Shown here piece by piece: positions 8,910-28,214 of a stretch of DNA of 64,000 bases. The translations under genes were made by a program, and so were the position numbers. The stretch comes from an uncultured Tateyamaria sp. (GTDB lineage: Bacteria; Pseudomonadota; Alphaproteobacteria; Rhodobacterales; Rhodobacteraceae). The stretch lies in NCBI RefSeq assembly GCF_947497045.1, contig NZ_CANMEU010000012.1, positions 1-64,000 on the forward strand, given 5' to 3'. Positions within the stretch are counted from its first letter, which is position 1, and each line of letters opens with the position of its first letter. A model generated the notes under the pieces. That model was not told the DNA's origin, did not search any database, and saw only the letters and a program-made list of their open reading frames with translations.

Positions 8910-9425
8910 ATGGCTGGGAGTTCACAGAAATTCATTGCGCGCAATCGCGCGCCACGGGTGCAGATCGAGTATGATGTGGAATTGTACGGTGCCGAGAAAA
9001 AGGTGCAGTTGCCGTTTGTGATGGGCGTCATGTCCGATCTGGCCGGTAAGTCCGAGGTCGAGCAACCTGCCGTTGCGGACCGCAAGTTTCTTGAGATCGA
9101 CGTCGACAACTTTGACGATCGTATGAAGTCGATGGCACCCCGCGCGGCCTTTACCGTGCCCAACACTCTGACGGGTGAGGGCAACATGGCCGTCGACATG
9201 ACGTTTTCGTCGATGGATGATTTCAGCCCTGCCGCCATTGCGGCCAAGGTTGAGCCCCTCAAGGAACTGCTTGATGCCCGCACGCAGCTGAGCAACCTTA
9301 TGACATATATGGACGGCAAGACCGGTGCCGAGGAGCTGATCGCCAAGATCACGCAGGATCCGACCCTGCTCAAGACCCTTGCCGCACAGCCTGCCCCCAA
9401 AGCTGACAGCGAAGATCAGGAGTAA
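8910..9425 (+). CDS. tssB: T6SS sheath small subunit TssB (VipA)
   Basis: 171 residues, a full-length TssB. Landmarks are QKFIARNRAPRVQIEYDVE at the N-terminus, KVQLPFVMGVMSDLAG, FLEIDVDNFDDRM, and the C-terminal helix LLDARTQLSNLMTYMDGK, which packs with TssC. TssB and TssC form the contractile cytoplasmic sheath. A strong site (GAAGGAGA) precedes the ATG. tssC follows after 3 bases, with its ribosome binding site overlapping the tssB stop, which fits stoichiometric coupling. A second TssB, very similar by eye over its entire length, forms the N-terminus of the fusion protein at 21658. Confidence 0.96.
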   Translation: MAGSSQKFIARNRAPRVQIEYDVELYGAEKKVQLPFVMGVMSDLAGKSEVEQPAVADRKFLEIDVDNFDDRMKSMAPRAAFTVPNTLTGEGNMAVDMTFSSMDDFSPAAIAAKVEPLKELLDARTQLSNLMTYMDGKTGAEELIAKITQDPTLLKTLAAQPAPKADSEDQE

Positions 9426-9428
9426 AAG

Positions 9429-10922
9429 ATGGCCGAGACAGAAACAGAAGTCGCAGCCGGTGGTGAAGCCACGGCGTTCGGGTCCTCCGATTTCGAGAAC
9501 CTGCTGAAAAAGGAATTCCGGCCCAAGTCGGATCAGGCGAAGTCCGCCGTTGAACAGGCCGTCAAGACGCTGGCCGAACAGGCGCTGGCCAATTCCGCCC
9601 TGATCAGCGACGACGCCCTGCGCACCATCGAAAGCATCGTGTCCCAGATCGACAAGAAGCTGACCGAGCAGGTCAACGCGATCCTGCACCACCCTGATTT
9701 CCAGCAACTTGAAAGTGCGTGGCGTGGGTTGCACTACCTCGTCAACAACACCGAGACCGACGAGATGCTCAAGGTCCGGGTGATGAACATCTCCAAGAAG
9801 GACATGCACAAGACATTGCGCAAGTTCAAAGGGACGGCCTGGGATCAGTCCCCGATCTTCAAGAAGATCTACGAAGAAGAGTTTGGCCAGTTTGGTGGCG
9901 AACCCTATGGCTCGCTTGTGGCCGACTATCACTTTGACCACTCCCCACCGGATGTGGAATTGCTGGGTGAGATGGCCAAGATTGCTGCCGCCGCCCACGC
10001 CCCTCTGATCACCGGTGCCAACCCGACCCTGTTCCAGATGGACAGCTGGTCCGAACTGGCCAACCCGCGTGACCTGACCAAGATCTTCCAGACCCCGGAA
10101 TACGCCTCGTGGCGGTCCCTGCGCGAAAGCGAGGATTCCAAATATATCGGTCTGGCGATGCCCCGGTTCCTGGGCCGTTTGCCTTATGGGTCGGCCACCG
10201 ACCCCGTCGAAGCCTTTGCCTTTGAAGAGGACACAGACGGGTCCGATGCCACCAAATATGGCTGGGTCAACGCGGCTTATGGCATGGCTGTCAATATCAA
10301 CCGCTCGTTCAAGGAATACGGCTGGTGCTCGCGGATCCGTGGTATCGAAAGCGGTGGCGCGATCGAGGGTCTGCCGTCGCACACGTTCCCGACGGATGAT
10401 GGCGGCGTGGACCAGAAATGCCCCACCGAGATCGCGATTTCGGATCGGCGCGAGGCCGAATTGGCCAAGAACGGCATGATGCCTTTGATCCACCGCAAGA
10501 ACTCGGATCTGGCCGCCTTTATCGGTGCCCAATCGCTGCACAAACCTGCGGAATATGACGACGACGATGCCACGGCGAACGCCAATCTGGCCGCCCGTCT
10601 GCCCTATCTGTTCGCGACCTGCCGCTTTGCGCATTACCTCAAGTGTATCGTGCGCGACAAAGTCGGTTCGTACAAAAGCCGCGATGATATGCAGGACTGG
10701 TTGCAGACCTGGGTCAACCAGTATGTCGATTTCAACCCTGACACCTCACCGGAATCAGTCAAGGCCCAACAGCCGCTGGCCGCCGCCGATGTTGTGGTTG
10801 AAGAAGTCGAGGGCAACCCCGGCTACTACACATCGAAGTTCTTTCTTCGACCCCATTACCAGCTTGAAGGGCTGTCCGTATCCCTTCGACTGGTGTCCAA
10901 GCTGCCGAGCGAAAAGGGCTGA
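9429..10922 (+). CDS. tssC: T6SS sheath large subunit TssC (VipB)
   Basis: 497 residues, the normal length for TssC. Landmarks are ILHHPDFQQLESAWRGLHYLV, the YHFDHSPPDVELLGEM region, PRFLGRLPYG and the C-terminal LRPHYQLEGLSVSLRLVSKLP that contributes the inter-subunit strands of the sheath. With TssB it builds the contractile tube; ClpV disassembles it after firing. The ClpV-binding N-terminal helix region is present. This copy is the reference against which the shortened TssC-like domain of the 21658 fusion can be judged. Confidence 0.97.
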   Translation: MAETETEVAAGGEATAFGSSDFENLLKKEFRPKSDQAKSAVEQAVKTLAEQALANSALISDDALRTIESIVSQIDKKLTEQVNAILHHPDFQQLESAWRGLHYLVNNTETDEMLKVRVMNISKKDMHKTLRKFKGTAWDQSPIFKKIYEEEFGQFGGEPYGSLVADYHFDHSPPDVELLGEMAKIAAAAHAPLITGANPTLFQMDSWSELANPRDLTKIFQTPEYASWRSLRESEDSKYIGLAMPRFLGRLPYGSATDPVEAFAFEEDTDGSDATKYGWVNAAYGMAVNINRSFKEYGWCSRIRGIESGGAIEGLPSHTFPTDDGGVDQKCPTEIAISDRREAELAKNGMMPLIHRKNSDLAAFIGAQSLHKPAEYDDDDATANANLAARLPYLFATCRFAHYLKCIVRDKVGSYKSRDDMQDWLQTWVNQYVDFNPDTSPESVKAQQPLAAADVVVEEVEGNPGYYTSKFFLRPHYQLEGLSVSLRLVSKLPSEKG

Positions 10923-15827: not shown

Positions 15828-18563
15828 ATGACGGAAATCAGCCGCGTTGCCCTGTTTGGCAAGCTCAACAGCCTTGGTTTCAAAGCCATTGAAGGCGCCA
15901 CTGTATTCTGCAAGATGCGCGGCAACCCGTATGTCGAGGTGGTACACTGGCTGCACCAGATCCTCAACAATCAAGACAGCGACATTCACCACATTATCCA
16001 GCATTTCGATCTGGATGCGGGTGCCATCGCGACCGAGATGACCAAGGCGCTCGACAATCTGCCGCGCGGGGCCTCGTCTGTCAGTGACCTGTCGGCCCAT
16101 CTTGAGGACGTGATGGAACGCGCATGGGTCTGGGGCTCGCTGCTCTATTCCTCGAACCAGGTGCGCACGGGTCATTTGATTTTGGGGATGCTCGAAACCC
16201 CCAACCTCAAGAACATCCTGATGAGCATTTCGCCCACATTGGCAGGCATCAAGGCGGACGCGTTGGCGGATGATTTCCACACTATCACCGACGGTTCGCC
16301 CGAGGATGCGATGCGCCCGCAGGACGGGTCGGTCACGGGCGGTGGTGCCGAACCCGGCGAGGCGAGCGGTGCCATGGCCCCCTCGCAGATGGGCAAGGAG
16401 GAGGCGCTGGCGCAGTTCTGTACCGACCTCACCGAACAGGCCCGCAACGGCGATATCGACCCTATCGTGGGCCGCGACGAGGAAATCCGCCAGATTGTCG
16501 ACGTACTGATGCGCCGCCGTCAGAACAACCCGATCCTGACCGGCGAGGCGGGCGTGGGCAAGACGGCTGTGGTCGAGGGGTTCGCCCTGCGCATCGCCCG
16601 TGGTGATGTGCCCCCCGCACTGCGCGACGTGCGCCTGTTGGTGCTGGATGTGGGTCTGTTGCAGGCGGGTGCCTCGATGAAGGGCGAGTTCGAGAACCGT
16701 CTGCGTCAGGTCATTGACGAGGTGCAGGGGTCAACCACCCCCATCGTGATGTTTGTGGATGAGACCCACACGCTGGTCGGGGCAGGGGGGGCCGCAGGGA
16801 CGGGCGATGCCGCCAACCTGCTCAAACCCGCGTTGGCCCGCGGCACCTTGCGCACCATCGGCGCAACCACCTGGGCCGAGTACAAGAAATACATTGAAAA
16901 GGATCCCGCCCTGACCCGCCGTTTCCAGGTGGTTCATGTCGAAGAGCCCGACATCCCAAAGGCCGTGCTGATGATGCGCGGGATCGCCGCGATGCTCGAA
17001 AAACACCACAAGGTGCAGGTGCTGGACGAGGGGATCGAAGCGTCGGTCACTCTTTCGGCCCGCTATATCCCGGCCCGCCAGCTGCCCGACAAATCCGTCA
17101 GTCTGCTGGATACCGCCTGTGCCCGTGTCGCCGTCAGCCAGCACGCTGTGCCCGCCCAGGTCGATGACAGCCAGCGCCGGATTGAATCGCTGACCACCGA
17201 GCTTGAGATTATCGGCCGGGACGAGACCGCCGGCTATGACGTGGCCGACCGCCGCGCCGAGGTGCAGGCCAGCAGGGACGCCGAAGAGGAGCGTTTGCTC
17301 GGCCTCAGGGCCAACTGGGAGAAGGAAAAGGCGCTGGTCTCCGAAATCATCGAGTTGCGCGCCAAGCTGCGCGAGGGTGGTCAGTCAGTCGAAAATACCC
17401 ACACGCCCGAAGGTGCTGCCGCCGATGAGGCCGCCGCCGAGAGCGAAGCCGTGACCCCGATCAGCGAAGAAGACCGCGCCGCGATCATGGCCGAGTTGAA
17501 GGCCAAGAACGCCGAACTGGTAGAGCAGCAGGGCGACAGCCCCCTGATCATGCCCATCGTGGATCATCAGGCGGTGGCAAGCGTTGTCGGCGACTGGACA
17601 GGCATTCCCGTGGGCCGCATGGTCAAGGACGAGATCGAGACGGTTCTGAACCTCGAAGAACATCTGGCCAAGCGCGTCATCGGTCAGGACCACGCGATGA
17701 AGATGATCGCCAAGCGCATCCAGACCAGCCGCGCGGGCCTCGACAACCCATCAAAACCCATCGGGGTCTTCATGCTGGCGGGCACGTCCGGTGTGGGCAA
17801 AACCGAAACCGCGCTGGCCCTCGCTGAGGTTCTGTACGGTGGCGAGCAGAACGTCATCACCATCAACATGTCCGAGTACCAAGAGGCGCACACCGTGTCC
17901 TCGCTGAAAGGGGCTCCTCCGGGCTATGTCGGCTATGGCGAGGGCGGTGTGCTGACCGAGGCGGTGCGGCGCAAACCCTATTCCGTCGTCTTGCTGGACG
18001 AGGTCGAAAAGGCGCACCCGGACGTCCACGAGATCTTTTTCCAGGTGTTCGACAAGGGCGTGATGGAAGACGGCGAGGGCCGCGTGATCGATTTCAAGAA
18101 CACCCTGATCCTGCTGACCTCGAATGCGGGCACGGACCTGATCATGGACCTGTGCAGCGATCCCGAATTGCTGCCCGAACCCGAAGGCATGGCCAAGGCG
18201 CTGCGAGAGCCGCTGCTCAAGGTGTTCCCGCCTGCGTTGCTTGGGCGTCTGGTTGCGATTCCCTACTATCCGCTCAGCCCCGACATGATCGGCAAGATCA
18301 CGGTGCTGCAACTCAACCGGATCAAGAAGCGCGTCGAGGCCGCCCATGGTGTGCCCTTCGAGTATTCCGATGCGGTTGTGGCCGAGATCGTGGATCGCTG
18401 TCAGGAACTGGAAAGCGGCGGGCGCATGATCGACGCCATCGTCACAAACACCATGCTGCCTGATATTTCCGCCGAATTCCTGCGCCGCATGATGGAGGGG
18501 GGCACCATCGACAAGGTGGCCATCGACGTCGCGGACCACGAATTCACCTACAGCTTCGAGTAA
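15828..18563 (+). CDS. tssH: T6SS sheath-recycling AAA+ ATPase TssH (ClpV)
   Basis: 911 residues, ClpB/ClpV type. An N-terminal domain (~1-150) is followed by AAA domain 1 with Walker A GEAGVGKT (~residue 238) and Walker B VMFVDETH, a coiled middle domain (~residues 440-570), AAA domain 2 with Walker A GTSGVGKT (~651) and Walker [14 protein letters not shown], and the C-terminal D2-small domain. ClpV binds the TssC N-terminal helix in contracted sheaths and extracts subunits. It is the last gene of the canonical first block; three non-canonical genes and the giant sheath fusion follow. Confidence 0.96.
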
Positions 18564-18575
18564 GGACAAAGAACG

Positions 18576-19688
18576 ATGCAATTCGTCATTCAACCCAAAA
18601 GCGGGTTCGCCGCCAGCGAACTCATTCGCATGAAAAGCAGGTCAGGCCGGATCAACTTTGAAGGCTCGATTTCAGCCACATGGAAGGACCCGGGCCTTGC
18701 CAAGGTCGATCAGGCTGTCGCCTCGGATTTCCTGGTCAAACTGGGGATCAACCTTGAGCGTGCCTACAAGGCCAAGATCAGTGCCTGGAAAAGTGATTTG
18801 CAAAGCAAGATGGATGCGCTGGAGGAAAAGCTCGGCAAATCCGAAGAGAAGTTTCGCAAGGAAGCACTGAAGAAATCCAAGTCTGACAGCGAGAAACAAA
18901 AGTTCGTCGACTCCCAGAACAAGGATCAGACCAGCCGTCTGGAGAAGATCAAGAAAGAAGCGCAGGCCGCCTATACCAAGCTGATTTCGGATCTGGCCTT
19001 GCCAGCCCGCAAGGCGACGATGAAGGCGCTGGCGGATGCGCCCAAGGAGCTGAAGAAAAGCAAGCTGTCCACGGCCATCAAGATCGGCAAATGGCTTTTG
19101 ACCGCGGCTGTGATTGTGGCGGCCGCCCTTGCCCTGCCCCCCGCGGGTGTCACGGCGGCCTTCGTAGTCGCAGCAGCAACCATCGTTCACAAAAGCATGT
19201 CCGCCGCCAATGACGCTGTCGGGATCTACAAGGAACAGTTCAAGACCGCCAAGCTGAAAGTCGAAAAGGCGAATGTCTCGCTGTCGGCGGCGGATGACGC
19301 CATCGGCGAGGCCATCGCGGATATGCGCGGCGTCAAGGATGCCATCGGCGCGATGCGCGTCAAGAAGGCCACGACCGAGATTGCGATCAACAAGTACAAG
19401 ACCCAGATCGCCGCGTCAGGCAAGGATTCCCCGGCTGCAACCAAGGCAATCGCCAAGTCCACGGCCAAGGCGGACGAGGCCCAGAAATACATGACTGAAC
19501 TCGACGCTGCCGTGGGTGGCGACCCGGATGCTGTCTTGGCCAACCTGCAAGCCGCACGCACAGCCCTCAAAAAGGCGATAAATGCCATGCCCGAACCGAA
19601 GAAGGCCAAGGACAGCAAGTTGCAAAAGATCGTGGATTGTCTGGATGCCGTGTCCGGCATTGCCGATGATGTGAAGGAGTTGGCCTGA
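18576..19688 (+). CDS. Helical protein with a hydrophobic hairpin, T6SS-linked unknown
   Basis: 370 residues, not recognised as a named family. There is no signal peptide. Residues ~55-150 are Lys/Glu/Ala-rich and coiled-coil-like. Residues ~170-205 hold two hydrophobic helices (WLLTAAVIVAAALAL and GVTAAFVVAAATIV) joined by PPAG. A second long Ala/Lys-rich helical part follows. This soluble-coils-plus-hydrophobic-hairpin plan resembles alpha-helical pore-formers such as colicin pore domains or XaxA-like toxins, but that is only an analogy. It sits 12 bases after clpV and before another helical protein, so it could be an effector, an effector-loading protein or a structural accessory. Confidence 0.7.
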   Translation: MQFVIQPKSGFAASELIRMKSRSGRINFEGSISATWKDPGLAKVDQAVASDFLVKLGINLERAYKAKISAWKSDLQSKMDALEEKLGKSEEKFRKEALKKSKSDSEKQKFVDSQNKDQTSRLEKIKKEAQAAYTKLISDLALPARKATMKALADAPKELKKSKLSTAIKIGKWLLTAAVIVAAALALPPAGVTAAFVVAAATIVHKSMSAANDAVGIYKEQFKTAKLKVEKANVSLSAADDAIGEAIADMRGVKDAIGAMRVKKATTEIAINKYKTQIAASGKDSPAATKAIAKSTAKADEAQKYMTELDAAVGGDPDAVLANLQAARTALKKAINAMPEPKKAKDSKLQKIVDCLDAVSGIADDVKELA

Positions 19689-19816: not shown

Positions 19817-20764
19817 ATGCCTGCCGCCCCCGGAACCAAGACGATGACCGCCAAGTTGTCGGTGCTACCCACGCAGGAAATGAAGCCCGAGGTCGTCAAG
19901 TGGATCAAGACCATGCCGAAGGTCGCCAAGTTGTTCGTCAAACCGCTGACCTATGACGACAAGATTGATCTGAACCCCAAGAAGTGGACAGACAAGAAAT
20001 TGTCCAAGGCGATGGCCGCGTTGGTGCGGTACGAGTTGGCCCTTCTTGCCAACCGTGCGAGCGATGCCAAGAAAGTGTCGGACAAGGCCAAGTCCCCCAT
20101 GGAGGAAATCAAGGTGGTGGGCCTTCTTCAGAAGGCGATCAAGAAGGCCCAGGCCGACATCGACAGCAAGTGTTCGGACGCTCTTGAGGAACTCGCATCC
20201 GGCAAGGGCGAGGCCAAGGCCGGGCTTGCTGCGGGTAAAAAGGCGATGGCGCAGATCAATACGCTCGACGTCTCATCCCTGTTTTCCGGGGTCATCGACA
20301 CTGGCACCAAAGCCGCCAAGAGCCTTTATGCCCCGCTGACGGGCAGTGATGATAAGAAGAAGCAAGCGGCCATTTCCAAAGCTTCCAAGGACGTGGAAGG
20401 GGCCGTGTCCAAGCTGAACGACACGGGCAAAACCGCCCAATCCGTGGCCAAGTATCTGCTTGATACAGGTAAGAAGCTGAAGAACCACGAGAACGGCCAA
20501 CTGGCCGATTTCGGCACCAGCATCCTCAAGAAAGATGTCCAGCCCGAGTTGGAGAAGCTGGATGCGGACATGTCCAAGCTTGAAGATGCGCTGACCCCTT
20601 TTGCCGCCGCCCTCAAGAAAGGGGATTTGGACCTTGCCGCCGCCAAGGCGTATGAAAAGAACCTGTCTGCACTCAGCGGATTGCAGGCCACCGCCAACAA
20701 GGCTGTCGCCGCGATGAAGTCCTTGCAGACCAAGTTCAAGAAAATCGAAAAAGACCTGAAGTAA
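19817..20764 (+). CDS. Helical, Lys/Ala-rich protein, T6SS-linked unknown
   Basis: 315 residues, no recognised domain, no signal peptide and no membrane helix. It starts MPAAPGTKTMTAKLSVLPTQ and is then almost completely helical, rich in Lys, Ala, Asp and Leu (repeated KKAQADID, KKLKNHE, LEKLDADMSKLEDAL). It ends with a long coiled-coil-like stretch. A good ribosome binding site (AAAGGAAC) lies before the ATG. The 128-base gap from the previous helical gene holds no further gene. Size, composition and adjacency suggest that the two helical proteins work together, for example as two components of one complex; homology between them is not obvious by eye. Confidence 0.65.
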   Translation: MPAAPGTKTMTAKLSVLPTQEMKPEVVKWIKTMPKVAKLFVKPLTYDDKIDLNPKKWTDKKLSKAMAALVRYELALLANRASDAKKVSDKAKSPMEEIKVVGLLQKAIKKAQADIDSKCSDALEELASGKGEAKAGLAAGKKAMAQINTLDVSSLFSGVIDTGTKAAKSLYAPLTGSDDKKKQAAISKASKDVEGAVSKLNDTGKTAQSVAKYLLDTGKKLKNHENGQLADFGTSILKKDVQPELEKLDADMSKLEDALTPFAAALKKGDLDLAAAKAYEKNLSALSGLQATANKAVAAMKSLQTKFKKIEKDLK

Positions 20765-20791
20765 GCCCCACAGTTTACGACCGGAGATGTG

Positions 20792-21658
20792 ATGACCCAG
20801 ACGAGCAGCGATATGAACACACCCAGTGCGCCCACGGACCATCGGGCCCGGTTGCGTCTGTTTCTGGAACAGCCGCGTGTGCACAACGCCATCCTTGCGC
20901 TGATCATTTTCAACGCGATCACACTTGGGGTCGGCACATCGAAATGGGTGCAGGCCCAGACGGGTGATTTGCTGTTTGTGGTCGACAAGATCGTGCTGAC
21001 CATCTTTGTGATCGAACTGGTGCTCAAACTTTATGCCTATGGGCTGAGCTTCTTTCGCAACTCGTGGAACATCTTTGATCTGTTCGTGGTCGGGGTGGGC
21101 TTGTTGCCCCAGACGGCGGGCCTGTCTGCCTTGCGGGGTTTGCGCGTCATTCGGGCCTTGCGCCTGTTGTCCGTCATTCCGCAAATGCGCGCTGTCGTGC
21201 AGGCCCTGCTGGATGCGTTGCCGGGCATGGGCGCGGTGATTGTGATGATTTCGATCGTGTTTTATGTGTTCGGGGTCATGGCCACGATCATGTACGGTGC
21301 CGCCTTTGACGAATGGTTCGGCAGCCTTGGCCGCTCGCTGTATTCGCTGTTCCAGATTATGACGCTGGAATCGTGGTCGATGGGTATCGTGCGCCCGGTG
21401 ATGGAGGTTTACCCATCGGCATGGGCCTTCTTTGTCCCCTTCATCGTGATCACTGCCTTTTCGGTGCTGAACCTCTTTATTGGTCTGCTCGTCAACACGA
21501 TGCAGTCCGCCGTGGAGGACGAGACCGAAGCCGAGTTTGAAAAGCTGCGCGAATTGGTGCGCGAAGAGACCGATCAGGTCGACGCCCATGTCCTTGAGCT
21601 CAAGGCCGAGCTGGTGGCGTTGCGCGCTGAACTCAGCGCCGCGCGGGAGGGCAAGTGA
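20792..21658 (+). CDS. NaChBac/NavAb-type voltage-gated sodium channel
   Basis: 288 residues, one six-helix ion-channel domain that would assemble as a tetramer in the inner membrane. Segments S1 (~31-48), S2 (~60-84), S3 (~91-107), S4 (~111-135, with Arg115, 118, 121 and 124 every third residue), S5 (~144-169), pore and S6 (~210-240) are all readable. The selectivity filter TLESWSM (191-197) is identical to that of NavAb/NavMs and predicts Na+ selectivity. The C-terminal 240-288 region is a charged coiled coil, as in other BacNav channels. The ATG at 20792 is favoured over the GTG at 20789 because of the CGGAG spacing. The stop overlaps the next gene's start (TGATG), which couples it to the sheath fusion. 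Confidence 0.93.
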   Translation: MTQTSSDMNTPSAPTDHRARLRLFLEQPRVHNAILALIIFNAITLGVGTSKWVQAQTGDLLFVVDKIVLTIFVIELVLKLYAYGLSFFRNSWNIFDLFVVGVGLLPQTAGLSALRGLRVIRALRLLSVIPQMRAVVQALLDALPGMGAVIVMISIVFYVFGVMATIMYGAAFDEWFGSLGRSLYSLFQIMTLESWSMGIVRPVMEVYPSAWAFFVPFIVITAFSVLNLFIGLLVNTMQSAVEDETEAEFEKLRELVREETDQVDAHVLELKAELVALRAELSAAREGK

Positions 21659-24600
21659 TGAGCGGCAGTCAGAAATTTATCGCCCGCAACCGCGCCCCCC
21701 GTGTTCAGATCGAATATGATGTCGAACTTTATGGGGCCCAGAAAAAGGTGCAGTTGCCCTTTGTCATGGGTGTGTTTTCCGACCTGTCAGGCAAGGCCGA
21801 AACCCCGGCAGTTGCAGATCGTAAATTCCTTGAAATCGACATCGATAACTTTGATGAACGTATGGCCGCCATCGCCCCCAAAGCACAGTTTTCCGTGCCC
21901 AATACGCTGACGGGGGAGGGCAATCTTTCGGTTGATCTGACCTTTACCAAGATGGCTGATTTTTCCCCGCAAGCCATTGCCGAAAATGTCGATGCTTTGC
22001 GCCCGTTGCTTGAGGCCCGCCAGCAATTGTCGGACCTGATGACCTATATGGATGGCAAGGCGGGGGCCGAAACCCTGATTGAAAAGCTGCTGTCCGAACC
22101 TGCGTTGCTGGCCACCCTGGGTGGCTCCGAAGGCCCATCTGCTGATGTAGACGCTGCACTTGATAGTCTGCGTGGTGCGTTGCCCTCAGATAGTACTGCT
22201 GACACCGGCACGGACGACACCCTTGCCGCATTGGCCGCGCAGGCCCCCACGGATGCGGCCCCCGACACCTCTGTTGCGGACGCGCTGAGCACCCTGCAAC
22301 CCGCGCCGGAAACCGTGGTCGAGGATGCCCATGGCTCTGCCCTTGACGCCTTGCGCGCGACCCCCGTCGAAACGGCGCCCGAGGGTGACAGTGCGGAGGA
22401 CGTGTTGTCCGGCATCGCCCGGACAGAGGTTGACACCCCTTCGGAAGGTGAAGACCCATCCGGTGACATTCTGGCGGGGATCGAGCGGGTGGACGACGCG
22501 CCAGTGGCGGACACCACCGACGACGTTCTTGCCGGATTGGATGCGCCCACAGCACCTGCCGACATGGGCGACGATGCGTCAGACGTGCTGGCCGGTCTTG
22601 CCGACGCCGCGGTCGAAGAGGCCCCGCCAGAAGACACCACCACGGATGTGCTGGCCGGGCTGGATCGGATCGAAACCCCAGACGCCGCAGATGACACGGC
22701 GGACATTCTCGCCGGGCTAGAGGTGCCTGATGAAGATGTCGTAGGGGCCGATGGCGTCGCTGATATTCTTGGTGATATGGCTGCTGCGCCACTGGCCGAG
22801 GATGCCCCCGAGGACGCCACCGACGATATTCTTGCAACCCTTGAGACAACAGCGCCCACGGCTGACGCGGATCAACCCCTTGATGATATTCTGGGTGGCA
22901 TCGCGGCCGCGCCAGAGGTCGAGGACACGCGTGATGGGTTGGATGATATCCTGTCCGGGTTGGAGATCCCGGAGGCCACGCCCGAGGCGGATATGCAAGA
23001 TATCCTGGGCGATATCGCCCCTGTCGAGGATGTTGCCGAAGATAACGGCGCCGACACTATTCTGGCCGGTCTCGACGCCGCGCCCGAGGATGCGCCGGAA
23101 GCCGACATTTTGGATGATGTGCTGGCCGGTCTGGAAGCTCCGGCTGTAGATACTCCACCCGACACCCAGGCCGACGATATCCTTGCAGGGTTGGACGCGC
23201 CCGATGCTCCGCCCGAAGACGAAGACACGCTGGATGATATCCTGGGCGGGCTTGATGCAGTGGAAGACACACCCGCCGAGGACGGGCTAGATGATATTCT
23301 GGGTGGGCTGGACGCGGTGGAGGAAGACGCTCCTACAGATGATCTGGACGACATCTTGGGCGGCTTGGACACGCCGGAGGCCGCGGCCACCGATACAGAC
23401 ACCGACGATATTCTGGGTGGGCTCGACGCTGCCGCGCCCGAAGCGGCAGCGGATGATCTGGATGATATTCTAGGTGGGCTTGAGGTGGCAACGGATGCCC
23501 CCGCCGAAGACGGGCTGGATGATATCCTGTCCGGTCTGGACGCGGCGGAGGACGACACGCCCGCAGATGATCTGGACGACATCCTCGGCGGCTTGGACGC
23601 ACCAGACGCCGCGGCCTCCGACACGGATACAGACGATATACTCAGCGAGTTGGACGCTGTCGCAGCGGATGAAGCGGTGGACGATCTGGATGATATTCTT
23701 GGCGACATCGACGGCGAGGACAGCACGGATACCGACCTCTCCGATATTCTGGGCGATCTTGGTGATGATACCGAAGCGCCATCTGAGGGCGATGACCTTG
23801 ATGCGCTGCTTGGCGACAGCGATGCCGAAACGGATACTGCCGATCTGGACGCGCTGCTTGGTGATTTGGACGACGACTCCGCAGGCGATGACCTCGATGA
23901 CATTCTGGCAGGGCTCGACAATCCGAACCCACAGGAAGAGGGGCCAGCGGAGGCCCTGACCAGCATGGATGAAACCGGGGCCGAGGATGATGTCCCCGTC
24001 CCGCCTCCGCCCGCAGTGCAGTCGCCATTTGGTCTGATTTCCGCGCCACGCCCGGAACGCGACAGCCTGAACCGATCGAAATTCCGCATGGCCGTGTTTG
24101 GTGACTTTACCGGGCGCGCCGCGCGGGGGCTGATGGAGACTGGCGATGCGCTCGCCAGTCGCACACCCATCCCGCTGGATGTGGACACGATTGACGATGT
24201 GATTGCGGGTTTCGGCACCACGCTCACCCTCAAAATCGGCAAAGATGGCGGTGGTGTGGATGTGAAGCTGAAAGAGCTGGATGACCTGCACCCGGATGAG
24301 TTATACGAGAACATCGCGATCTTTGACGAGATTTCGGGACTGCGCCAGCAATTGGGCATGGGGTCGATGGCGGACAAGGCCGTCAGCCAGCTGAAGTCAT
24401 GGTCCGAGACCTATGCCACTCCGATCAAGCTGCCCAAACGGTCAGCCAGCACATCGGTACCCACGAACCTTAAACTCAGCGATTTTCAGGCGCTGATCGG
24501 AGACAGTGGCGGCGTGCTCACCCAACCGGATGCTGCCGACGATCTGATTGCCCAGATCATCGGACCTCATATCGTGAAGGCCCCCGATGCGGGTGCCGCC

Positions 24601-25752
24601 GAGATGACCAAGGCGGTGGACGAAGCGCTGAGTTCGGCCATGCGGCTTGTGCTGCACCACCCTGACTTTCAAGCGATTGAGGCGCAGTGGCGCTCGCTTG
24701 ATATGCTCGCGCGGCGGATCGAAACGGACAGCACCCTTGAGATCATCCTGTTTGATGTGTCCGCCGAAGAGTTGGCCGCCGATCTGGCCGCCCATGAGGA
24801 CCTTGCCCAAAGCGGCTTGTTCAAACTGGTAACAGATGTACTGGACCCCGAAGAGGGGGCAGGCGGCTTTTCCGCGCTGTTCGGCCTCTATACGTTCGAG
24901 GAATCCCCGCCCCACGCCGAATTGCTGGCCCGGATCGGGCAAGTGGGTGCCCATGTGGATGCGCCGTTTTTCTCGGCGATCACGCCGGGCTATCTTGATG
25001 TCGCCAAGGAAGACCGCCACCCGTTGGTCGCCAAGGCGTGGGACACCCTTCGCGCGCTGCCAGAGGCTGCCTATCTGGCGCTGTCCTCACCCCGGTTCCT
25101 GTTGCGCCAACCTTTTGGTACAAAATCCGATCCGATCTATGCGTTCGAGTTCGAGGAGTTCACACCCAAAGAGGGGCTAAAGGGCATGCTGTGGGCCAAC
25201 CCGGTCGTGATGGTCGCGATCCTGCTGGCAGGCACCTACAAGAAAGACGGCAAAGCGATGGACCTTGGCACGCTGATGTCATTGGGTGATCTGCCATTCC
25301 ATTATGTGAATGACCGGCACGGTGATCAGGTGGCGCTGCCATGCACCGAACGCAACCTGACAAGTGACGCCGCCCAGACAACCCTGGGCCGGGGCTACAT
25401 GCCTGTGGTCTGGGTCAAGGGGCGCAATGAAATCCGCCTTGGCTCGTTCCGCTCGCTTGCGGGTGACATGATCGCAGGCCCATGGGAAGCCGAAGTACCC
25501 GCCCCCCGGCCCGGTCCGGGTGCAGGCACATTGAGCCTTGAGGTGGACATTCCGACCGACGACGGTGAGGATGGCGATGACACATCGCTTGACGATCTGT
25601 TGGGCGATCTTGACGATGGATCAGATGCAGATACGGGCGATGATATGGACACATCGCTTGATGATCTTTTGGCTGGCTTTGATGATGACGATGACAGCGC
25701 GGACGCAGAGGATATGGATCCCGAGCTGGCCGCCTTGTTGGAGGGATTATAG
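21658..25752 (+). CDS. TssB / Asp-rich repeat / TssB'-TssC' sheath-like fusion protein
   Basis: 1364 residues. Residues 1-~155 are a complete TssB, closely similar to the 8910 copy. Residues ~178-760 consist of about thirty acidic repeats of the form LDDILGGLD, spaced ~15-25 residues. Residues ~790-920 read as a second, diverged TssB-like domain (FRMAVFGDFTGR, then LELYENI-like helix and GLRQQLG). Residues ~980-1290 match TssC from LHHPDFQAIEAQWRSL through TFEESPPHAELLARIG and PRFLLRQPFG, but end before the TssC C-terminal region. An acidic tail with two more LDDLL motifs closes it. Start at ATG 21658 with GGGAGGG upstream, overlapping the channel stop. It is presumably cytoplasmic. TssBC-type fusions exist in databases; this particular four-part architecture is unfamiliar to me. 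Confidence 0.88.
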   Translation: MSGSQKFIARNRAPRVQIEYDVELYGAQKKVQLPFVMGVFSDLSGKAETPAVADRKFLEIDIDNFDERMAAIAPKAQFSVPNTLTGEGNLSVDLTFTKMADFSPQAIAENVDALRPLLEARQQLSDLMTYMDGKAGAETLIEKLLSEPALLATLGGSEGPSADVDAALDSLRGALPSDSTADTGTDDTLAALAAQAPTDAAPDTSVADALSTLQPAPETVVEDAHGSALDALRATPVETAPEGDSAEDVLSGIARTEVDTPSEGEDPSGDILAGIERVDDAPVADTTDDVLAGLDAPTAPADMGDDASDVLAGLADAAVEEAPPEDTTTDVLAGLDRIETPDAADDTADILAGLEVPDEDVVGADGVADILGDMAAAPLAEDAPEDATDDILATLETTAPTADADQPLDDILGGIAAAPEVEDTRDGLDDILSGLEIPEATPEADMQDILGDIAPVEDVAEDNGADTILAGLDAAPEDAPEADILDDVLAGLEAPAVDTPPDTQADDILAGLDAPDAPPEDEDTLDDILGGLDAVEDTPAEDGLDDILGGLDAVEEDAPTDDLDDILGGLDTPEAAATDTDTDDILGGLDAAAPEAAADDLDDILGGLEVATDAPAEDGLDDILSGLDAAEDDTPADDLDDILGGLDAPDAAASDTDTDDILSELDAVAADEAVDDLDDILGDIDGEDSTDTDLSDILGDLGDDTEAPSEGDDLDALLGDSDAETDTADLDALLGDLDDDSAGDDLDDILAGLDNPNPQEEGPAEALTSMDETGAEDDVPVPPPPAVQSPFGLISAPRPERDSLNRSKFRMAVFGDFTGRAARGLMETGDALASRTPIPLDVDTIDDVIAGFGTTLTLKIGKDGGGVDVKLKELDDLHPDELYENIAIFDEISGLRQQLGMGSMADKAVSQLKSWSETYATPIKLPKRSASTSVPTNLKLSDFQALIGDSGGVLTQPDAADDLIAQIIGPHIVKAPDAGAAEMTKAVDEALSSAMRLVLHHPDFQAIEAQWRSLDMLARRIETDSTLEIILFDVSAEELAADLAAHEDLAQSGLFKLVTDVLDPEEGAGGFSALFGLYTFEESPPHAELLARIGQVGAHVDAPFFSAITPGYLDVAKEDRHPLVAKAWDTLRALPEAAYLALSSPRFLLRQPFGTKSDPIYAFEFEEFTPKEGLKGMLWANPVVMVAILLAGTYKKDGKAMDLGTLMSLGDLPFHYVNDRHGDQVALPCTERNLTSDAAQTTLGRGYMPVVWVKGRNEIRLGSFRSLAGDMIAGPWEAEVPAPRPGPGAGTLSLEVDIPTDDGEDGDDTSLDDLLGDLDDGSDADTGDDMDTSLDDLLAGFDDDDDSADAEDMDPELAALLEGL
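22189..23937 (+). repeat. Asp-rich repeat block coding 'LDDILGGLD' units
   Basis: About thirty degenerate units, each centred on (L/T)DD(I/V)L(G/A/S)GL(D/E), are encoded in frame inside the fusion gene. The copies differ widely at synonymous positions, so most are old and maintained at protein level. One clear higher-order duplication is visible: 23272-23499 and 23500-23727 encode 76-residue blocks that align without gaps for about 70 residues, both starting PAEDGLDDIL. Confidence 0.9.
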
Positions 25753-26052
25753 ATGAATTCGATGGGCAATATCCCGGAACCGGATCCTGAACGGGATGAC
25801 GAACCGGATATCATTATTCTGGGGATCCAGAAGAGCAGCTACTACCTGTACAAGGGTGACGACTATTTGAACCAATTGCTTTTGGTGGACGGGGAATATC
25901 CAAAACCTGTCCTGTGTGTACATTTTGAGACTTTGATTGATGCAAAGCTTGTGATCGGAGACGGTTTTTCCATTGCGCAATACTGGGCCATTCACCCGGA
26001 AATCATTGCGCGCCTCCGATCCGATGAATGCCTTATTGAAACGGACGCATAG
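25753..26052 (+). CDS. Small acidic protein between sheath fusion and vgrG, unknown
   Basis: 99 residues, not recognised. It starts directly after the stop of the sheath fusion (TAGATG). It has an acidic Pro-rich N-terminus (IPEPDPERDDEPD) and then a compact, beta/alpha-looking core (IIILGIQKSSYYLYKGDDYLN, VLCVHFETLIDAKLVI). There is no signal peptide or membrane segment. Its place just before vgrG suggests a role in spike assembly, loading or fusion-protein binding, but this is position only. Confidence 0.6.
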   Translation: MNSMGNIPEPDPERDDEPDIIILGIQKSSYYLYKGDDYLNQLLLVDGEYPKPVLCVHFETLIDAKLVIGDGFSIAQYWAIHPEIIARLRSDECLIETDA

Positions 26053-26081: not shown

Positions 26082-28214
26082 ATGGCCGAAAAAGACTTAA
26101 TACTGGAGAACCGAAAGGTCTGGATGGAGGGGGAGTACTCCGCCAAGACCGTGAACCTGAAAAATGCGCGTGTGGTCGAGGGGCTAAGCACCTTGACCAC
26201 AACCACCGTGGAATTCACGTCATCCGACGACAAGTTGGATCTTCAGGATATTCTGGGCTCGGATATATCGCTTGGCATGAAAGACGCTGACGAGGCAGAT
26301 CGGTTTTTCACCGGCACCTGCACATCCGTTGAATATGTGGGCCTGTCCCAGGGTCTGAACCACTTTGTTGCCGAGGTCCGCCCCTGGTTGTGGTTCCTGA
26401 CCCGCACGCAGGAAAACCGCATCTTTCAGGAAAAGACCGTTTTGGAGATTATCCAAGAGGTGCTTGAAGACGAGGATTACGGTTTCTGGTCGGACGTGCA
26501 AAAGAAGACCACGGGCAGCTACAAGCAGCGCGTCTATTGCGTGCAATATAACGAGACCGATTTCGACTTCATCTCGCGGTTGATGGAAGAAGAGGGCATC
26601 TATTACTACTTTGTGCAGGACGGCAAAAAGCTGAAAATGGTGCTGGCCGACAGCATCAGCGCGCACAAGGCCACCCCCGGCGGCCCCGAATTCGAGTTCC
26701 ACTTCAAAGAGGCACAGTACCGCCGCCGCAATGACCACATCTTTGACTGGAGCGAAGCCACGGGTGTCACTACCGGCAAGATCACCCTGAACGACTATGA
26801 TTTCGAAAAGCCGAAGGCGGACAAGAAGACCGTAAAGGCGATTTCAAAGGGCAAGCACAAACACAATAAATACGAACACTATCGCTATCCCGGTCACAGC
26901 CGGATTGAGGGGATGGGCGACGATTTCACCAAAATCCGCATGGAAGCCGAGGCCGTCAAGCACAAGCTGTCGCGCGGGGCGGGCAACATCCGCACCCTTG
27001 GTGTCGGTCAGACCCTCAAGATGAAAGGGCACCCGCGCAAGAACAACAATGCAGAATATCTGGTGACCCATGCGGTGCATCACCTACAGATCGAGACGGA
27101 TTACGAGGTTGAGGAAACCAAGAAGCCGCTCTTTGACAGCACCATTCCGGTGGATGAGGACAACAAGGACACCTACCGCGTCGTCTTTGATGTCATCCCC
27201 AAGGCCGAACCCTTCCGCGCGCCACAAACGACTGAGTGGCCCCGGTTGCTTGGCATGCAGACGGCCGTTGTGACCGGCCCCTCGGGTGACGAGATCTACA
27301 CCGACAAATATGGCCGTATCAAAGTCCAGTTTTATTGGGACCGCGTGGGCAAGAAAGACGAAAACACCACCTGTTGGGTACGTTGTGTCATGCCGTGGAC
27401 CGGCAAAGACTGGGGCATGATTTCGGTCCCGCGGATCGGACAGGAAGTCGCCATTCAGTTTGAAGAAGGCGACCCTGATCGCCCGATCTGCACCGGCATG
27501 CTTTATAATACCGACACCATGCCCCCTTATGCGCTGCCCGCCAACATGACCCAGACCGGGATCAAGACCCGCTCGACCAAGGGCGGCGGGGCGGCCAACT
27601 ATAATGAGCTGGTGTTCGAGGACAAAAAGGATGCCGAGTTCATCCGCATGCACTCCGAAAAGGACTATTTCCAGACCATCGAGAACAACGCCGAAATCAA
27701 GATCGGGCAAGAAAAGAAAGACCCCGGTGACCTGACCCAGACGATCTATCACACCAAGACCGAAACGATCGAGACCGGCGACCACATCTTTAAGGTCGAG
27801 ACCGGCAATCAGGATATCTTCGTCAAGACGAACCACACCGAAAAGATCGAAGGCACCTCGACCGAGACAATCAAGGGCAATACCGAGACGACCATCGAGG
27901 AGGGGAACTATACCCAGACCATCAGTGCAGGCAACGTGACCCGCGAGGTGTCTATGGGCAATGAGGATGTGACCGTGTCGATGGGCAACTACAGTCTGGA
28001 CACCACCGCAGGCAAAGTCGTGGTGACCGCAGGGATGGAAATTTCGCTGACGGTGGGTGCCAATTCAATCACCATCGACAACAGCGGGATCACCATTTCG
28101 GGCATCATGGTCACTGTCGAAGGGCAGGCCACGGTCGATGTCGGCTCACCCATGACCACCGTAACGGGGGATGGTATGCTGACCCTCGACGGTGGCGTGA
28201 CCATGATCAACTGA
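26082..28214 (+). CDS. vgrG: T6SS spike protein VgrG (TssI)
   Basis: 710 residues. The N-terminal gp27-like part (to ~380) includes the QYNETDFDFISRLMEEEGIYYYF block. The gp5 OB-fold region carries DKYGRIKVQFYWDR and MISVPRIGQEVAIQFEEGDPDRPICTG. The C-terminus is a repeated beta-needle (TETIKGNTETTIEEG and similar) that ends without an added toxin domain, so this VgrG is a structural spike rather than an evolved effector. The ribosome binding site GGCGAGGAG lies upstream. It is followed by a small T6SS-associated gene and the PAAR tip, the usual spike module. Confidence 0.96.
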   Translation: MAEKDLILENRKVWMEGEYSAKTVNLKNARVVEGLSTLTTTTVEFTSSDDKLDLQDILGSDISLGMKDADEADRFFTGTCTSVEYVGLSQGLNHFVAEVRPWLWFLTRTQENRIFQEKTVLEIIQEVLEDEDYGFWSDVQKKTTGSYKQRVYCVQYNETDFDFISRLMEEEGIYYYFVQDGKKLKMVLADSISAHKATPGGPEFEFHFKEAQYRRRNDHIFDWSEATGVTTGKITLNDYDFEKPKADKKTVKAISKGKHKHNKYEHYRYPGHSRIEGMGDDFTKIRMEAEAVKHKLSRGAGNIRTLGVGQTLKMKGHPRKNNNAEYLVTHAVHHLQIETDYEVEETKKPLFDSTIPVDEDNKDTYRVVFDVIPKAEPFRAPQTTEWPRLLGMQTAVVTGPSGDEIYTDKYGRIKVQFYWDRVGKKDENTTCWVRCVMPWTGKDWGMISVPRIGQEVAIQFEEGDPDRPICTGMLYNTDTMPPYALPANMTQTGIKTRSTKGGGAANYNELVFEDKKDAEFIRMHSEKDYFQTIENNAEIKIGQEKKDPGDLTQTIYHTKTETIETGDHIFKVETGNQDIFVKTNHTEKIEGTSTETIKGNTETTIEEGNYTQTISAGNVTREVSMGNEDVTVSMGNYSLDTTAGKVVVTAGMEISLTVGANSITIDNSGITISGIMVTVEGQATVDVGSPMTTVTGDGMLTLDGGVTMIN

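What the first reader, a model, noticed from the sequence alone, without database searches (positions are those of the whole stretch)
21658..25752. Four-part sheath fusion: TssB - acidic repeats - TssB' - TssC'
Seen: one 1364-residue gene in a T6SS operon that already has separate tssB and tssC carries a full extra TssB, ~30 LDDILGGLD-type repeats, a diverged second TssB-like domain and a TssC-like domain. Known: TssB and TssC form the contractile sheath in a 1:1 lattice. Inference: a protein with a lattice-competent TssB joined by a ~580-residue acidic tether to a modified TssBC unit could cap, measure, tether or modulate the sheath, or couple it to another complex.
Basis: partly seen in the sequence, partly recalled or inferred. 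Interest (0 to 1): 0.92.

Follow-up and report, generated by a model that had tools for sequence, protein, structure and literature searches.

The report
Tethered handshake-less T6SS sheath protein (TssCL)
A marine bacterium's toxin-injecting machine carries, besides its normal contractile sheath proteins, a long extra one that joins a normal sheath piece by an acidic leash to a sheath piece that has lost the parts used to polymerise; the long form was named in 2022 without a known function, and its far end belongs to a wider family of sheath-like proteins.

Summary
Window 21658-25752 is one intact 1364-codon gene: a full TssB, a ~625-residue acidic tether with 24 spaced hydrophobic motifs, a diverged TssB' and only the N-terminal part of a TssC. 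It is a real, conserved gene (63 related loci, vgrG the next recognised gene in each). The architecture is not new: it is TssCL, reported in roseobacters including Tateyamaria in 2022 (PMC9515649), function unknown. Added here: (1) the C-terminal half (TssB'C') lacks the TssB arm and the TssC gpW/gp25-like domain in 61 of 61 members scanned, and that domain is also missing in 18 of 18 stand-alone relatives, so it should not be able to join the sheath lattice; (2) TssB'C' is a separate branch of sheath proteins, also found alone (about 480-610 aa) in other proteobacteria, so TssCL is probably an elaboration of it rather than a simple recent fusion; (3) its TssC-type linker helix tends to follow the ClpV groove class; (4) the N-terminal TssB keeps its arm nearly unchanged and was re-captured or converted several times. 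Best reading: the TssB end joins the sheath and holds outside it a ClpV-facing sheath mimic that tunes sheath turnover or growth. No structure could be predicted; the mechanism is inference.

The parts
21658..25752 (+). TssCL-type four-part sheath protein, 1364 aa plus stop
   Evidence: 63 related loci
21682..22122 (+). N-terminal full TssB (residues 9-155), arm intact
   Evidence: PF05591; matches P. aeruginosa HsiB1 4uqz at 6.5e-67 with nearly identical first 35 residues
22153..24027 (+). Acidic tether, about residues 166-790, with 24 motifs of the DDILGGLD kind
   Evidence: tandem DNA repeat 23272-23699
24082..24354 (+). TssB' (residues 809-899): match starts at position 28 of PF05591, so the N-terminal arm is missing
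24472..24501 (+). Linker motif KLSDFQALIG, at the place of the TssC N-terminal helix
   Evidence: place; equivalence with the TssC helix is my reading
24604..25455 (+). TssC' (residues 983-1266): PF05943 only, no PF18945
25486..25749 (+). Acidic C-terminal tail; motifs at 25585-25617 and 25654-25689; C-terminus DMDPELAALLEGL at 25711-25749
   Evidence: C-terminal LAA[LM][LM]xx[LM] in 64 of 64 related C-termini
8910..9425 (+). tssB of the operon
9429..10922 (+). tssC of the operon, with PF05943 and PF18945
11562..12428 (+). tagJ (ImpE, PF07024)
15828..18563 (+). clpV, groove residues R6 and D87 as in P. aeruginosa ClpV1
20789..21658 (+). ion channel gene (PF00520), its stop overlaps the start of the fusion gene
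26082..28214 (+). vgrG

Best explanation
The gene encodes an accessory sheath protein of the local T6SS. Step 1 (inferred from sequence): its N-terminal TssB takes the place of a TssB in the growing sheath, pairing with the ordinary TssC through its intact arm. Step 2 (inferred from a published sheath structure in which TssB residues after the C-terminal helix were not traced at the outer edge): the acidic tether leaves from the outer sheath surface. Step 3 (domain content shown; consequence inferred): the TssB'C' head has lost the TssB arm and the TssC handshake domain, so it should not extend the lattice or enclose the tube. Step 4 (inferred, weakest): the head keeps the outer, ClpV-facing part of a sheath protomer and a class-appropriate TssC-type helix, and so acts as a sheath-held mimic or adaptor that tunes ClpV/TagJ-driven sheath disassembly. 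The core job lies in the head (plus tail in this branch), since other bacteria have it alone; TssB plus tether brings it to the sheath.
For: PF18945 absent in 61 of 61 members scanned (window plus 60 of 63 loci) and 18 of 18 stand-alone relatives, present in the operon TssC, in a TssC paralogue and the TssC of L138, in Eleftheria's TssC and in two true TssB-TssC fusions. N-TssB arm conserved at 0.98, with 92-100% amino-acid identity to the operon TssB but only 36-94% identical codons among the shared residues over the first 36 positions of 33 pairs; the N-TssB label changes at least 5 times across well supported branches of the TssB tree: repeated capture or conversion from the local tssB, as lattice fit would ask. 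The genome has two PF05943 genes, so one T6SS. Of 17 genomes with a stand-alone head, 16 have ClpV over the curated cut-off and 16 a full-size TssC elsewhere. Linker motif of the LLD kind in 6 of 7 systems with ClpV L6 and A or V87 against 1 of 10 with R6/D87 (Fisher 0.004).
Against: No structure or binding test. The motif-groove match was classed by eye after seeing the data, is not corrected for kinship (two same-genus pairs), and may only reflect inheritance together with the T6SS. The tether repeats look like the LLDEII motif of open-groove systems, yet this ClpV has the R6/D87 pair that obstructs the groove in P. aeruginosa ClpV1 (PMC4239648). In 10 of 18 stand-alone loci my queries found no T6SS gene within the stretch read (L137, L215, L216, L217, L220, L222-L225, L228). 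One of the 17 genomes, G766 (290 contigs), shows neither ClpV over the cut-off nor TagJ nor, at E 1e-45, a TssC. No clpV or tagJ was seen around Eleftheria's head, though the plasmid gene table is incomplete.
Confidence: 0.37

Rival explanations
1. Chain terminator or end cap: the head docks on the open sheath end by its body but, lacking arm and handshake domain, cannot accept the next ring; the fused TssB and leash raise its local concentration and so limit length or growth.
For: The missing parts are the lattice-linking ones; published work puts the links in the TssB N-terminal and TssC C-terminal strands (PMC5807055, passages).
Against: No evidence that the head binds sheath ends; handshake strands may also be needed for docking; TssB-anchored heads would sit all along the sheath, not at its end.
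Confidence: 0.25
2. Sheath-bound hub: the acidic, multivalent tether and tail recruit or concentrate another partner (a T6SS part or cargo), and the head is mainly an anchor.
For: The motif count exceeds all 200 shuffles in 34 of 45 long forms; C-terminal motif in 64 of 64 related C-termini and in two stand-alone relatives, Eleftheria and G765.
Against: 11 of 45 long forms do not exceed shuffles; 16 of 18 stand-alone relatives have no such tail; no partner identified.
Confidence: 0.17
3. Baseplate or spike-loading adaptor near VgrG rather than a sheath regulator.
For: vgrG is the next recognised gene downstream in 63 of 63 loci; vgrG beside the stand-alone gene in 5 of 18 loci (L218, L219, L221, L226, L227).
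Against: Gene neighbourhood is weak evidence; a full TssB fused to the head points to the sheath.
Confidence: 0.11
4. Decayed or neutral fusion without function.
For: Tether length and sequence vary widely; TssB plus tether is missing from the gene in 8 loci.
Against: Head and C-terminus conserved across many genera; arm identity far above codon identity.
Confidence: 0.05

Closest known systems
TssCL of roseobacters (PMC9515649, 2022)
   Same: Two VipA domains and one VipB domain in one long protein, beside separate tssB and tssC; same genus included (Tateyamaria sp. ANG-S1)
   Different: What I saw of that paper (passages, among them part of the abstract, and section 12) calls it a TssB-TssC fusion, not detected outside Alphaproteobacteria and probably recent, and does not mention the missing handshake domain, the acidic motif tether, the conserved C-terminus or stand-alone relatives of the C-terminal half
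TssB (VipA, HsiB1)
   Same: N-terminal part is a full TssB; the protein is over the TIGR03358 cut-off
   Different: Here followed by a leash and a second sheath-like unit
TssC (VipB, HsiC1)
   Same: TssC' shares the N-terminal sheath domain PF05943
   Different: Under the TIGR03355 cut-off; no PF18945; on the other side of a 100/100 branch from all TssC rows used
TssC40 of Agrobacterium (PMC3702570, passages seen)
   Same: A second, non-redundant TssC-like protein in one T6SS
   Different: A second TssC of G263 (L138), which I take to be TssC40-like, keeps PF18945 and lies with TssC, not with TssC'; Agrobacterium's own protein was not tested
Simple TssB-TssC fusions (L014, L043)
   Same: TssB and TssC in one chain
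   Different: Their TssB match starts at position 2 of PF05591 and they keep PF18945

Membership tests
TssCL (PMC9515649) | Two VipA (PF05591) and one VipB (PF05943) domain in one protein | tested here: met
TssCL (PMC9515649) | In a T6SS cluster that also has separate tssB and tssC | tested here: met
TssCL (PMC9515649) | Host is a roseobacter | tested here: met
   Nearest named record Uncultured Tateyamaria sp., 96%
TssC (TIGR03355 / PF05943 + PF18945) | Score over curated cut-off | tested here: not met
   134.5 vs 271.5 bits
TssC (TIGR03355 / PF05943 + PF18945) | C-terminal gpW/gp25-like domain | tested here: not met
   0 of 61; 0 of 18 stand-alone
TssB (TIGR03358), N-terminal part | Score over curated cut-off, arm intact | tested here: met
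   197.5 vs 97.25 bits (whole protein); arm
TssB (TIGR03358), N-terminal part | Assembles with TssC into sheath | not testable with these tools
   needs microscopy or structure
TssC40-like paralogue | Groups with TssC40-like rows on a tree | tested here: not met
   34 TssC' rows on one side of a 100/100 branch, 36 TssC and second-TssC rows on the other (several duplicates, long branches)
ClpV client or adaptor | Binds ClpV or TagJ | not testable with these tools
   only motif-class agreement

The most novel reading that the evidence does not exclude
TssB'C' is an old, unrecognised accessory family of T6SS: a sheath protomer stripped of its handshake, matched to the ClpV system of its host, which regulates sheath turnover or growth; TssCL is its sheath-leashed form, made by capturing the local tssB again and again.
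Probability: 0.38. Interest if true: 0.72.

Novelty: new member of a known kind. Interest (0 to 1): 0.5.

Why it matters
How T6SS sheaths stop growing and how ClpV picks contracted sheaths are, to my knowledge, not settled. A natural sheath protomer without lattice-linking parts, held to the sheath by a leash in one branch and free in others, is a ready handle on both: deleting it or its parts should show whether it acts on length, stability or recycling. It also widens the published view of TssCL, whose C-terminal half is not confined to Alphaproteobacteria.

Tried and rejected
Rejected: artefact or several genes (63 loci); plain TssB-TssC fusion (no PF18945; true fusions keep it); origin from a TssC40-like paralogue; tether as strict ruler (162-1202 residues); tether repeats docking in the ClpV N-domain groove (this ClpV has R6/D87). 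Led nowhere: no conserved partner gene beside the stand-alone forms other than vgrG and T6SS core genes, in stretches of 20-29 kb; literature searches found no functional study of TssCL (open PMC papers only, no preprints; searches list only the best 15 of 44 and 265 papers). Imperfect points: five fusion proteins were auto-labelled TssC2 by score, and I count them with TssC' in the 34; four of these repeat other rows. In one search one genome is present twice (L035, L048); searches use 33 pairs without L035. Alignment A2 leaves out L044, L061 and L099 of the 63. Whether the short forms have an N-TssB elsewhere was looked at only in L066 and L080 (none). Kinds of linker motif were partly read by eye.

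Full report
What is there. The ORF from ATG 21658 to the stop at 25750-25752 encodes 1364 residues; the stop of the upstream ion-channel gene overlaps its start. Pfam gives PF05591 (TssB) twice and PF05943 (TssC N-terminal domain) once. Places: TssB 9-155, TssB' 809-899, TssC' 983-1266. Between TssB and TssB' lies a tether of about 625 residues with 194 acidic and 6 basic residues, and 24 copies of a motif [DE][IVL][LM]xx[LIMF], mostly 19-21 residues apart; 1000 shuffles give 0.88 on average and 6 at most. A further acidic tail follows TssC' and ends in DMDPELAALLEGL.

Surroundings. The operon reads tssA, tssB, tssC, an hcp-like gene (weak match), tagJ, tssE, tssF, tssG, clpV, two genes without Pfam match, an ion channel, the fusion gene, a small ORF, vgrG, a DUF6931 gene, tagH (FHA), a gene at the place of tssK, tssL (with OmpA) and tssM (the same order is annotated in Ruegeria conchae). 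The genome holds just two PF05943 genes, tssC and this one, so the fusion belongs to a single T6SS.

Relatives with names. A scan of the GTDB genome contigs returned 63 loci, nearly all Rhodobacterales, plus two Roseibium, one Rhizobium sp. and a few MAGs named only to class or less. In 63 of 63 vgrG is the next recognised gene downstream. The ion channel is upstream in 39 of the 53 loci where that side is visible. Of the 63, 45 have the N-terminal TssB and tether, 8 are short forms without them, and 10 are cut by a contig end. On the TssB'C' tree the short forms sit in three places, which one gain and three losses would explain; separate gains are not excluded. Tethers of the 45 long forms run from 162 to 1202 residues; the motif count beats all 200 shuffles in 34 of 45. 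All 64 C-termini read (the 63 plus L037) end in LAA[LM][LM]xx[LM].

The head is a sheath protomer without its handshake. All 61 members of alignment A2 (window plus 60 of the 63 loci) match PF05943 and PF05591, and none matches PF18945, the gpW/gp25-like domain, which the operon TssC has. In the window TssB' the match starts at position 28 of its profile, so the N-terminal arm is gone as well. The profile of the head matches P. aeruginosa TssC1 (5n8n chain B) only from chain position 30 to 324 of 461. In that sheath the handshake is made of TssC beta11, beta12, a neighbour's TssC beta13 and a neighbour's TssB beta1 (PMC5807055, passages); that PF18945 holds these TssC strands follows from its name and C-terminal place, not from a structure made here.

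The N-terminal TssB, by contrast, looks lattice-competent. Its first 35 residues are nearly identical to HsiB1 of P. aeruginosa (4uqz), and the first 25 aligned residues, from QKF, are conserved at 0.98, against 0.99 in the operon TssB. Over the first 36 positions the 33 pairs share 92-100% of residues but only 36-94% of the codons of shared residues, which speaks for selection rather than recent copying alone; L041 and L042 (0.94 and 0.86) do look recently converted there. On the tree of 33 N-TssB and 33 operon TssB the label changes at least 5 times across well supported branches: N-TssB was captured or converted from the local tssB more than once, though a main group of 24 stays together. 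The tree rests on 150 columns.

Stand-alone relatives. The same head occurs alone in at least 15 of 369 genomes of the class of G263 (one more is cut by a contig end), in G479, in one alphaproteobacterium, G992, among 385 class genomes, and on a named plasmid of Eleftheria terrae, a betaproteobacterium. I read 18 of these proteins (476-679 residues as untrimmed open frames; Eleftheria's annotated protein has 592): 18 of 18 have PF05943 and PF05591, 0 of 18 has PF18945. Their surroundings are mixed: six of the 18 stretches hold several T6SS core genes, two more only vgrG, and in ten my queries (the window's own T6SS proteins) found none. Yet 16 of the 17 G genomes have a full-size TssC elsewhere and 16 a ClpV over the curated cut-off; G766, in 290 contigs, lacks both. 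On a tree of the TssC domain 34 TssC' rows lie on one side of a 100/100 branch and 36 rows of TssC, second TssC and true fusions on the other (some rows are duplicates, and the tool warns of long branches among TssC'). L214, Eleftheria and the Rhodobacterales group together (99/100), and these are the forms with the motif tail; the other 16 of 18 stand-alone forms lack it. The order suggested, as inference, is: handshake-less head first, tail next, TssB plus leash in the Rhodobacterales branch last.

ClpV link. Eleven of the 17 genomes have TagJ. In published work the TssC N-terminal LLDEII helix goes with ClpV proteins whose groove is not obstructed by charged residues such as R6/D87 (PMC4239648, passages and one section). 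Reading the linker between TssB' and TssC', where the TssC N-terminus would lie, I find the LLD kind in 6 of 7 systems with L6 and A or V87, and in 1 of 10 with R6/D87, the window being one of the ten (Fisher 0.004). Two open-groove genomes do have TagJ (G612, G992), so the motif follows the groove rather than TagJ. This was classed by eye afterwards, with related genomes among the rows. A charged groove does not exclude binding of another kind: EAEC ClpV1, bordered by charged residues, binds TssC directly (PMC5048182, passages).

Known or new. The architecture was reported as TssCL, with two VipA and one VipB domains, in the roseobacter squid isolates, Tateyamaria sp. [quoted passage not shown] its function was not known (PMC9515649; passages and section 12). 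It was described there as a fusion not detected outside Alphaproteobacteria. The long form stays within that class in my searches too, but its C-terminal half does not. I found no functional paper.

Mechanism. I favour a sheath-held, ClpV-facing mimic that tunes sheath turnover (0.37), ahead of an end cap (0.25), a multivalent hub (0.17), a baseplate or VgrG adaptor (0.11) and decay (0.05). That VipA with an elongated linker co-assembles with wild type and blocks function (PMC5797969, passages) shows that altered subunits can act inside a sheath. No structure could be predicted: the tool was busy, then switched off.

Noticed in passing
window 20789-21658: An ion channel gene (PF00520) sits inside the T6SS operon just before the fusion gene; present in 39 of 53 loci whose upstream side is visible.
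   Followed up: partly
window 18576-19688 and 19817-20764: Two lysine-rich proteins (55 K of 370 and 55 K of 315 residues) without Pfam match, between clpV and the ion channel; found by similarity only in some relatives.
   Followed up: partly
window 25753-26052: A 99-residue ORF directly after the fusion gene, before vgrG; not searched.
   Followed up: no
L043:6800-11398: In a same-genus genome (G012) a 1533-residue open frame joins an FGE-sulfatase-like domain to a full TssB and a full TssC with PF18945.
   Followed up: partly
L014:1405-3327: A true single-gene TssB-TssC fusion of 641 residues with PF18945 in an alphaproteobacterium of 1.9 Mb; 12 other genomes of 0.6-1.9 Mb have stop-free open frames of 634-732 residues at their match, not checked by domain.
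   Followed up: partly
L141:12634-16767 and L142:11809-16758: On plasmids of Ruegeria conchae and Leisingera methylohalidivorans the annotated start of the TssCL-type gene is internal: a TssB begins in frame upstream with no stop between, so the record hides the N-terminal TssB.
   Followed up: yes
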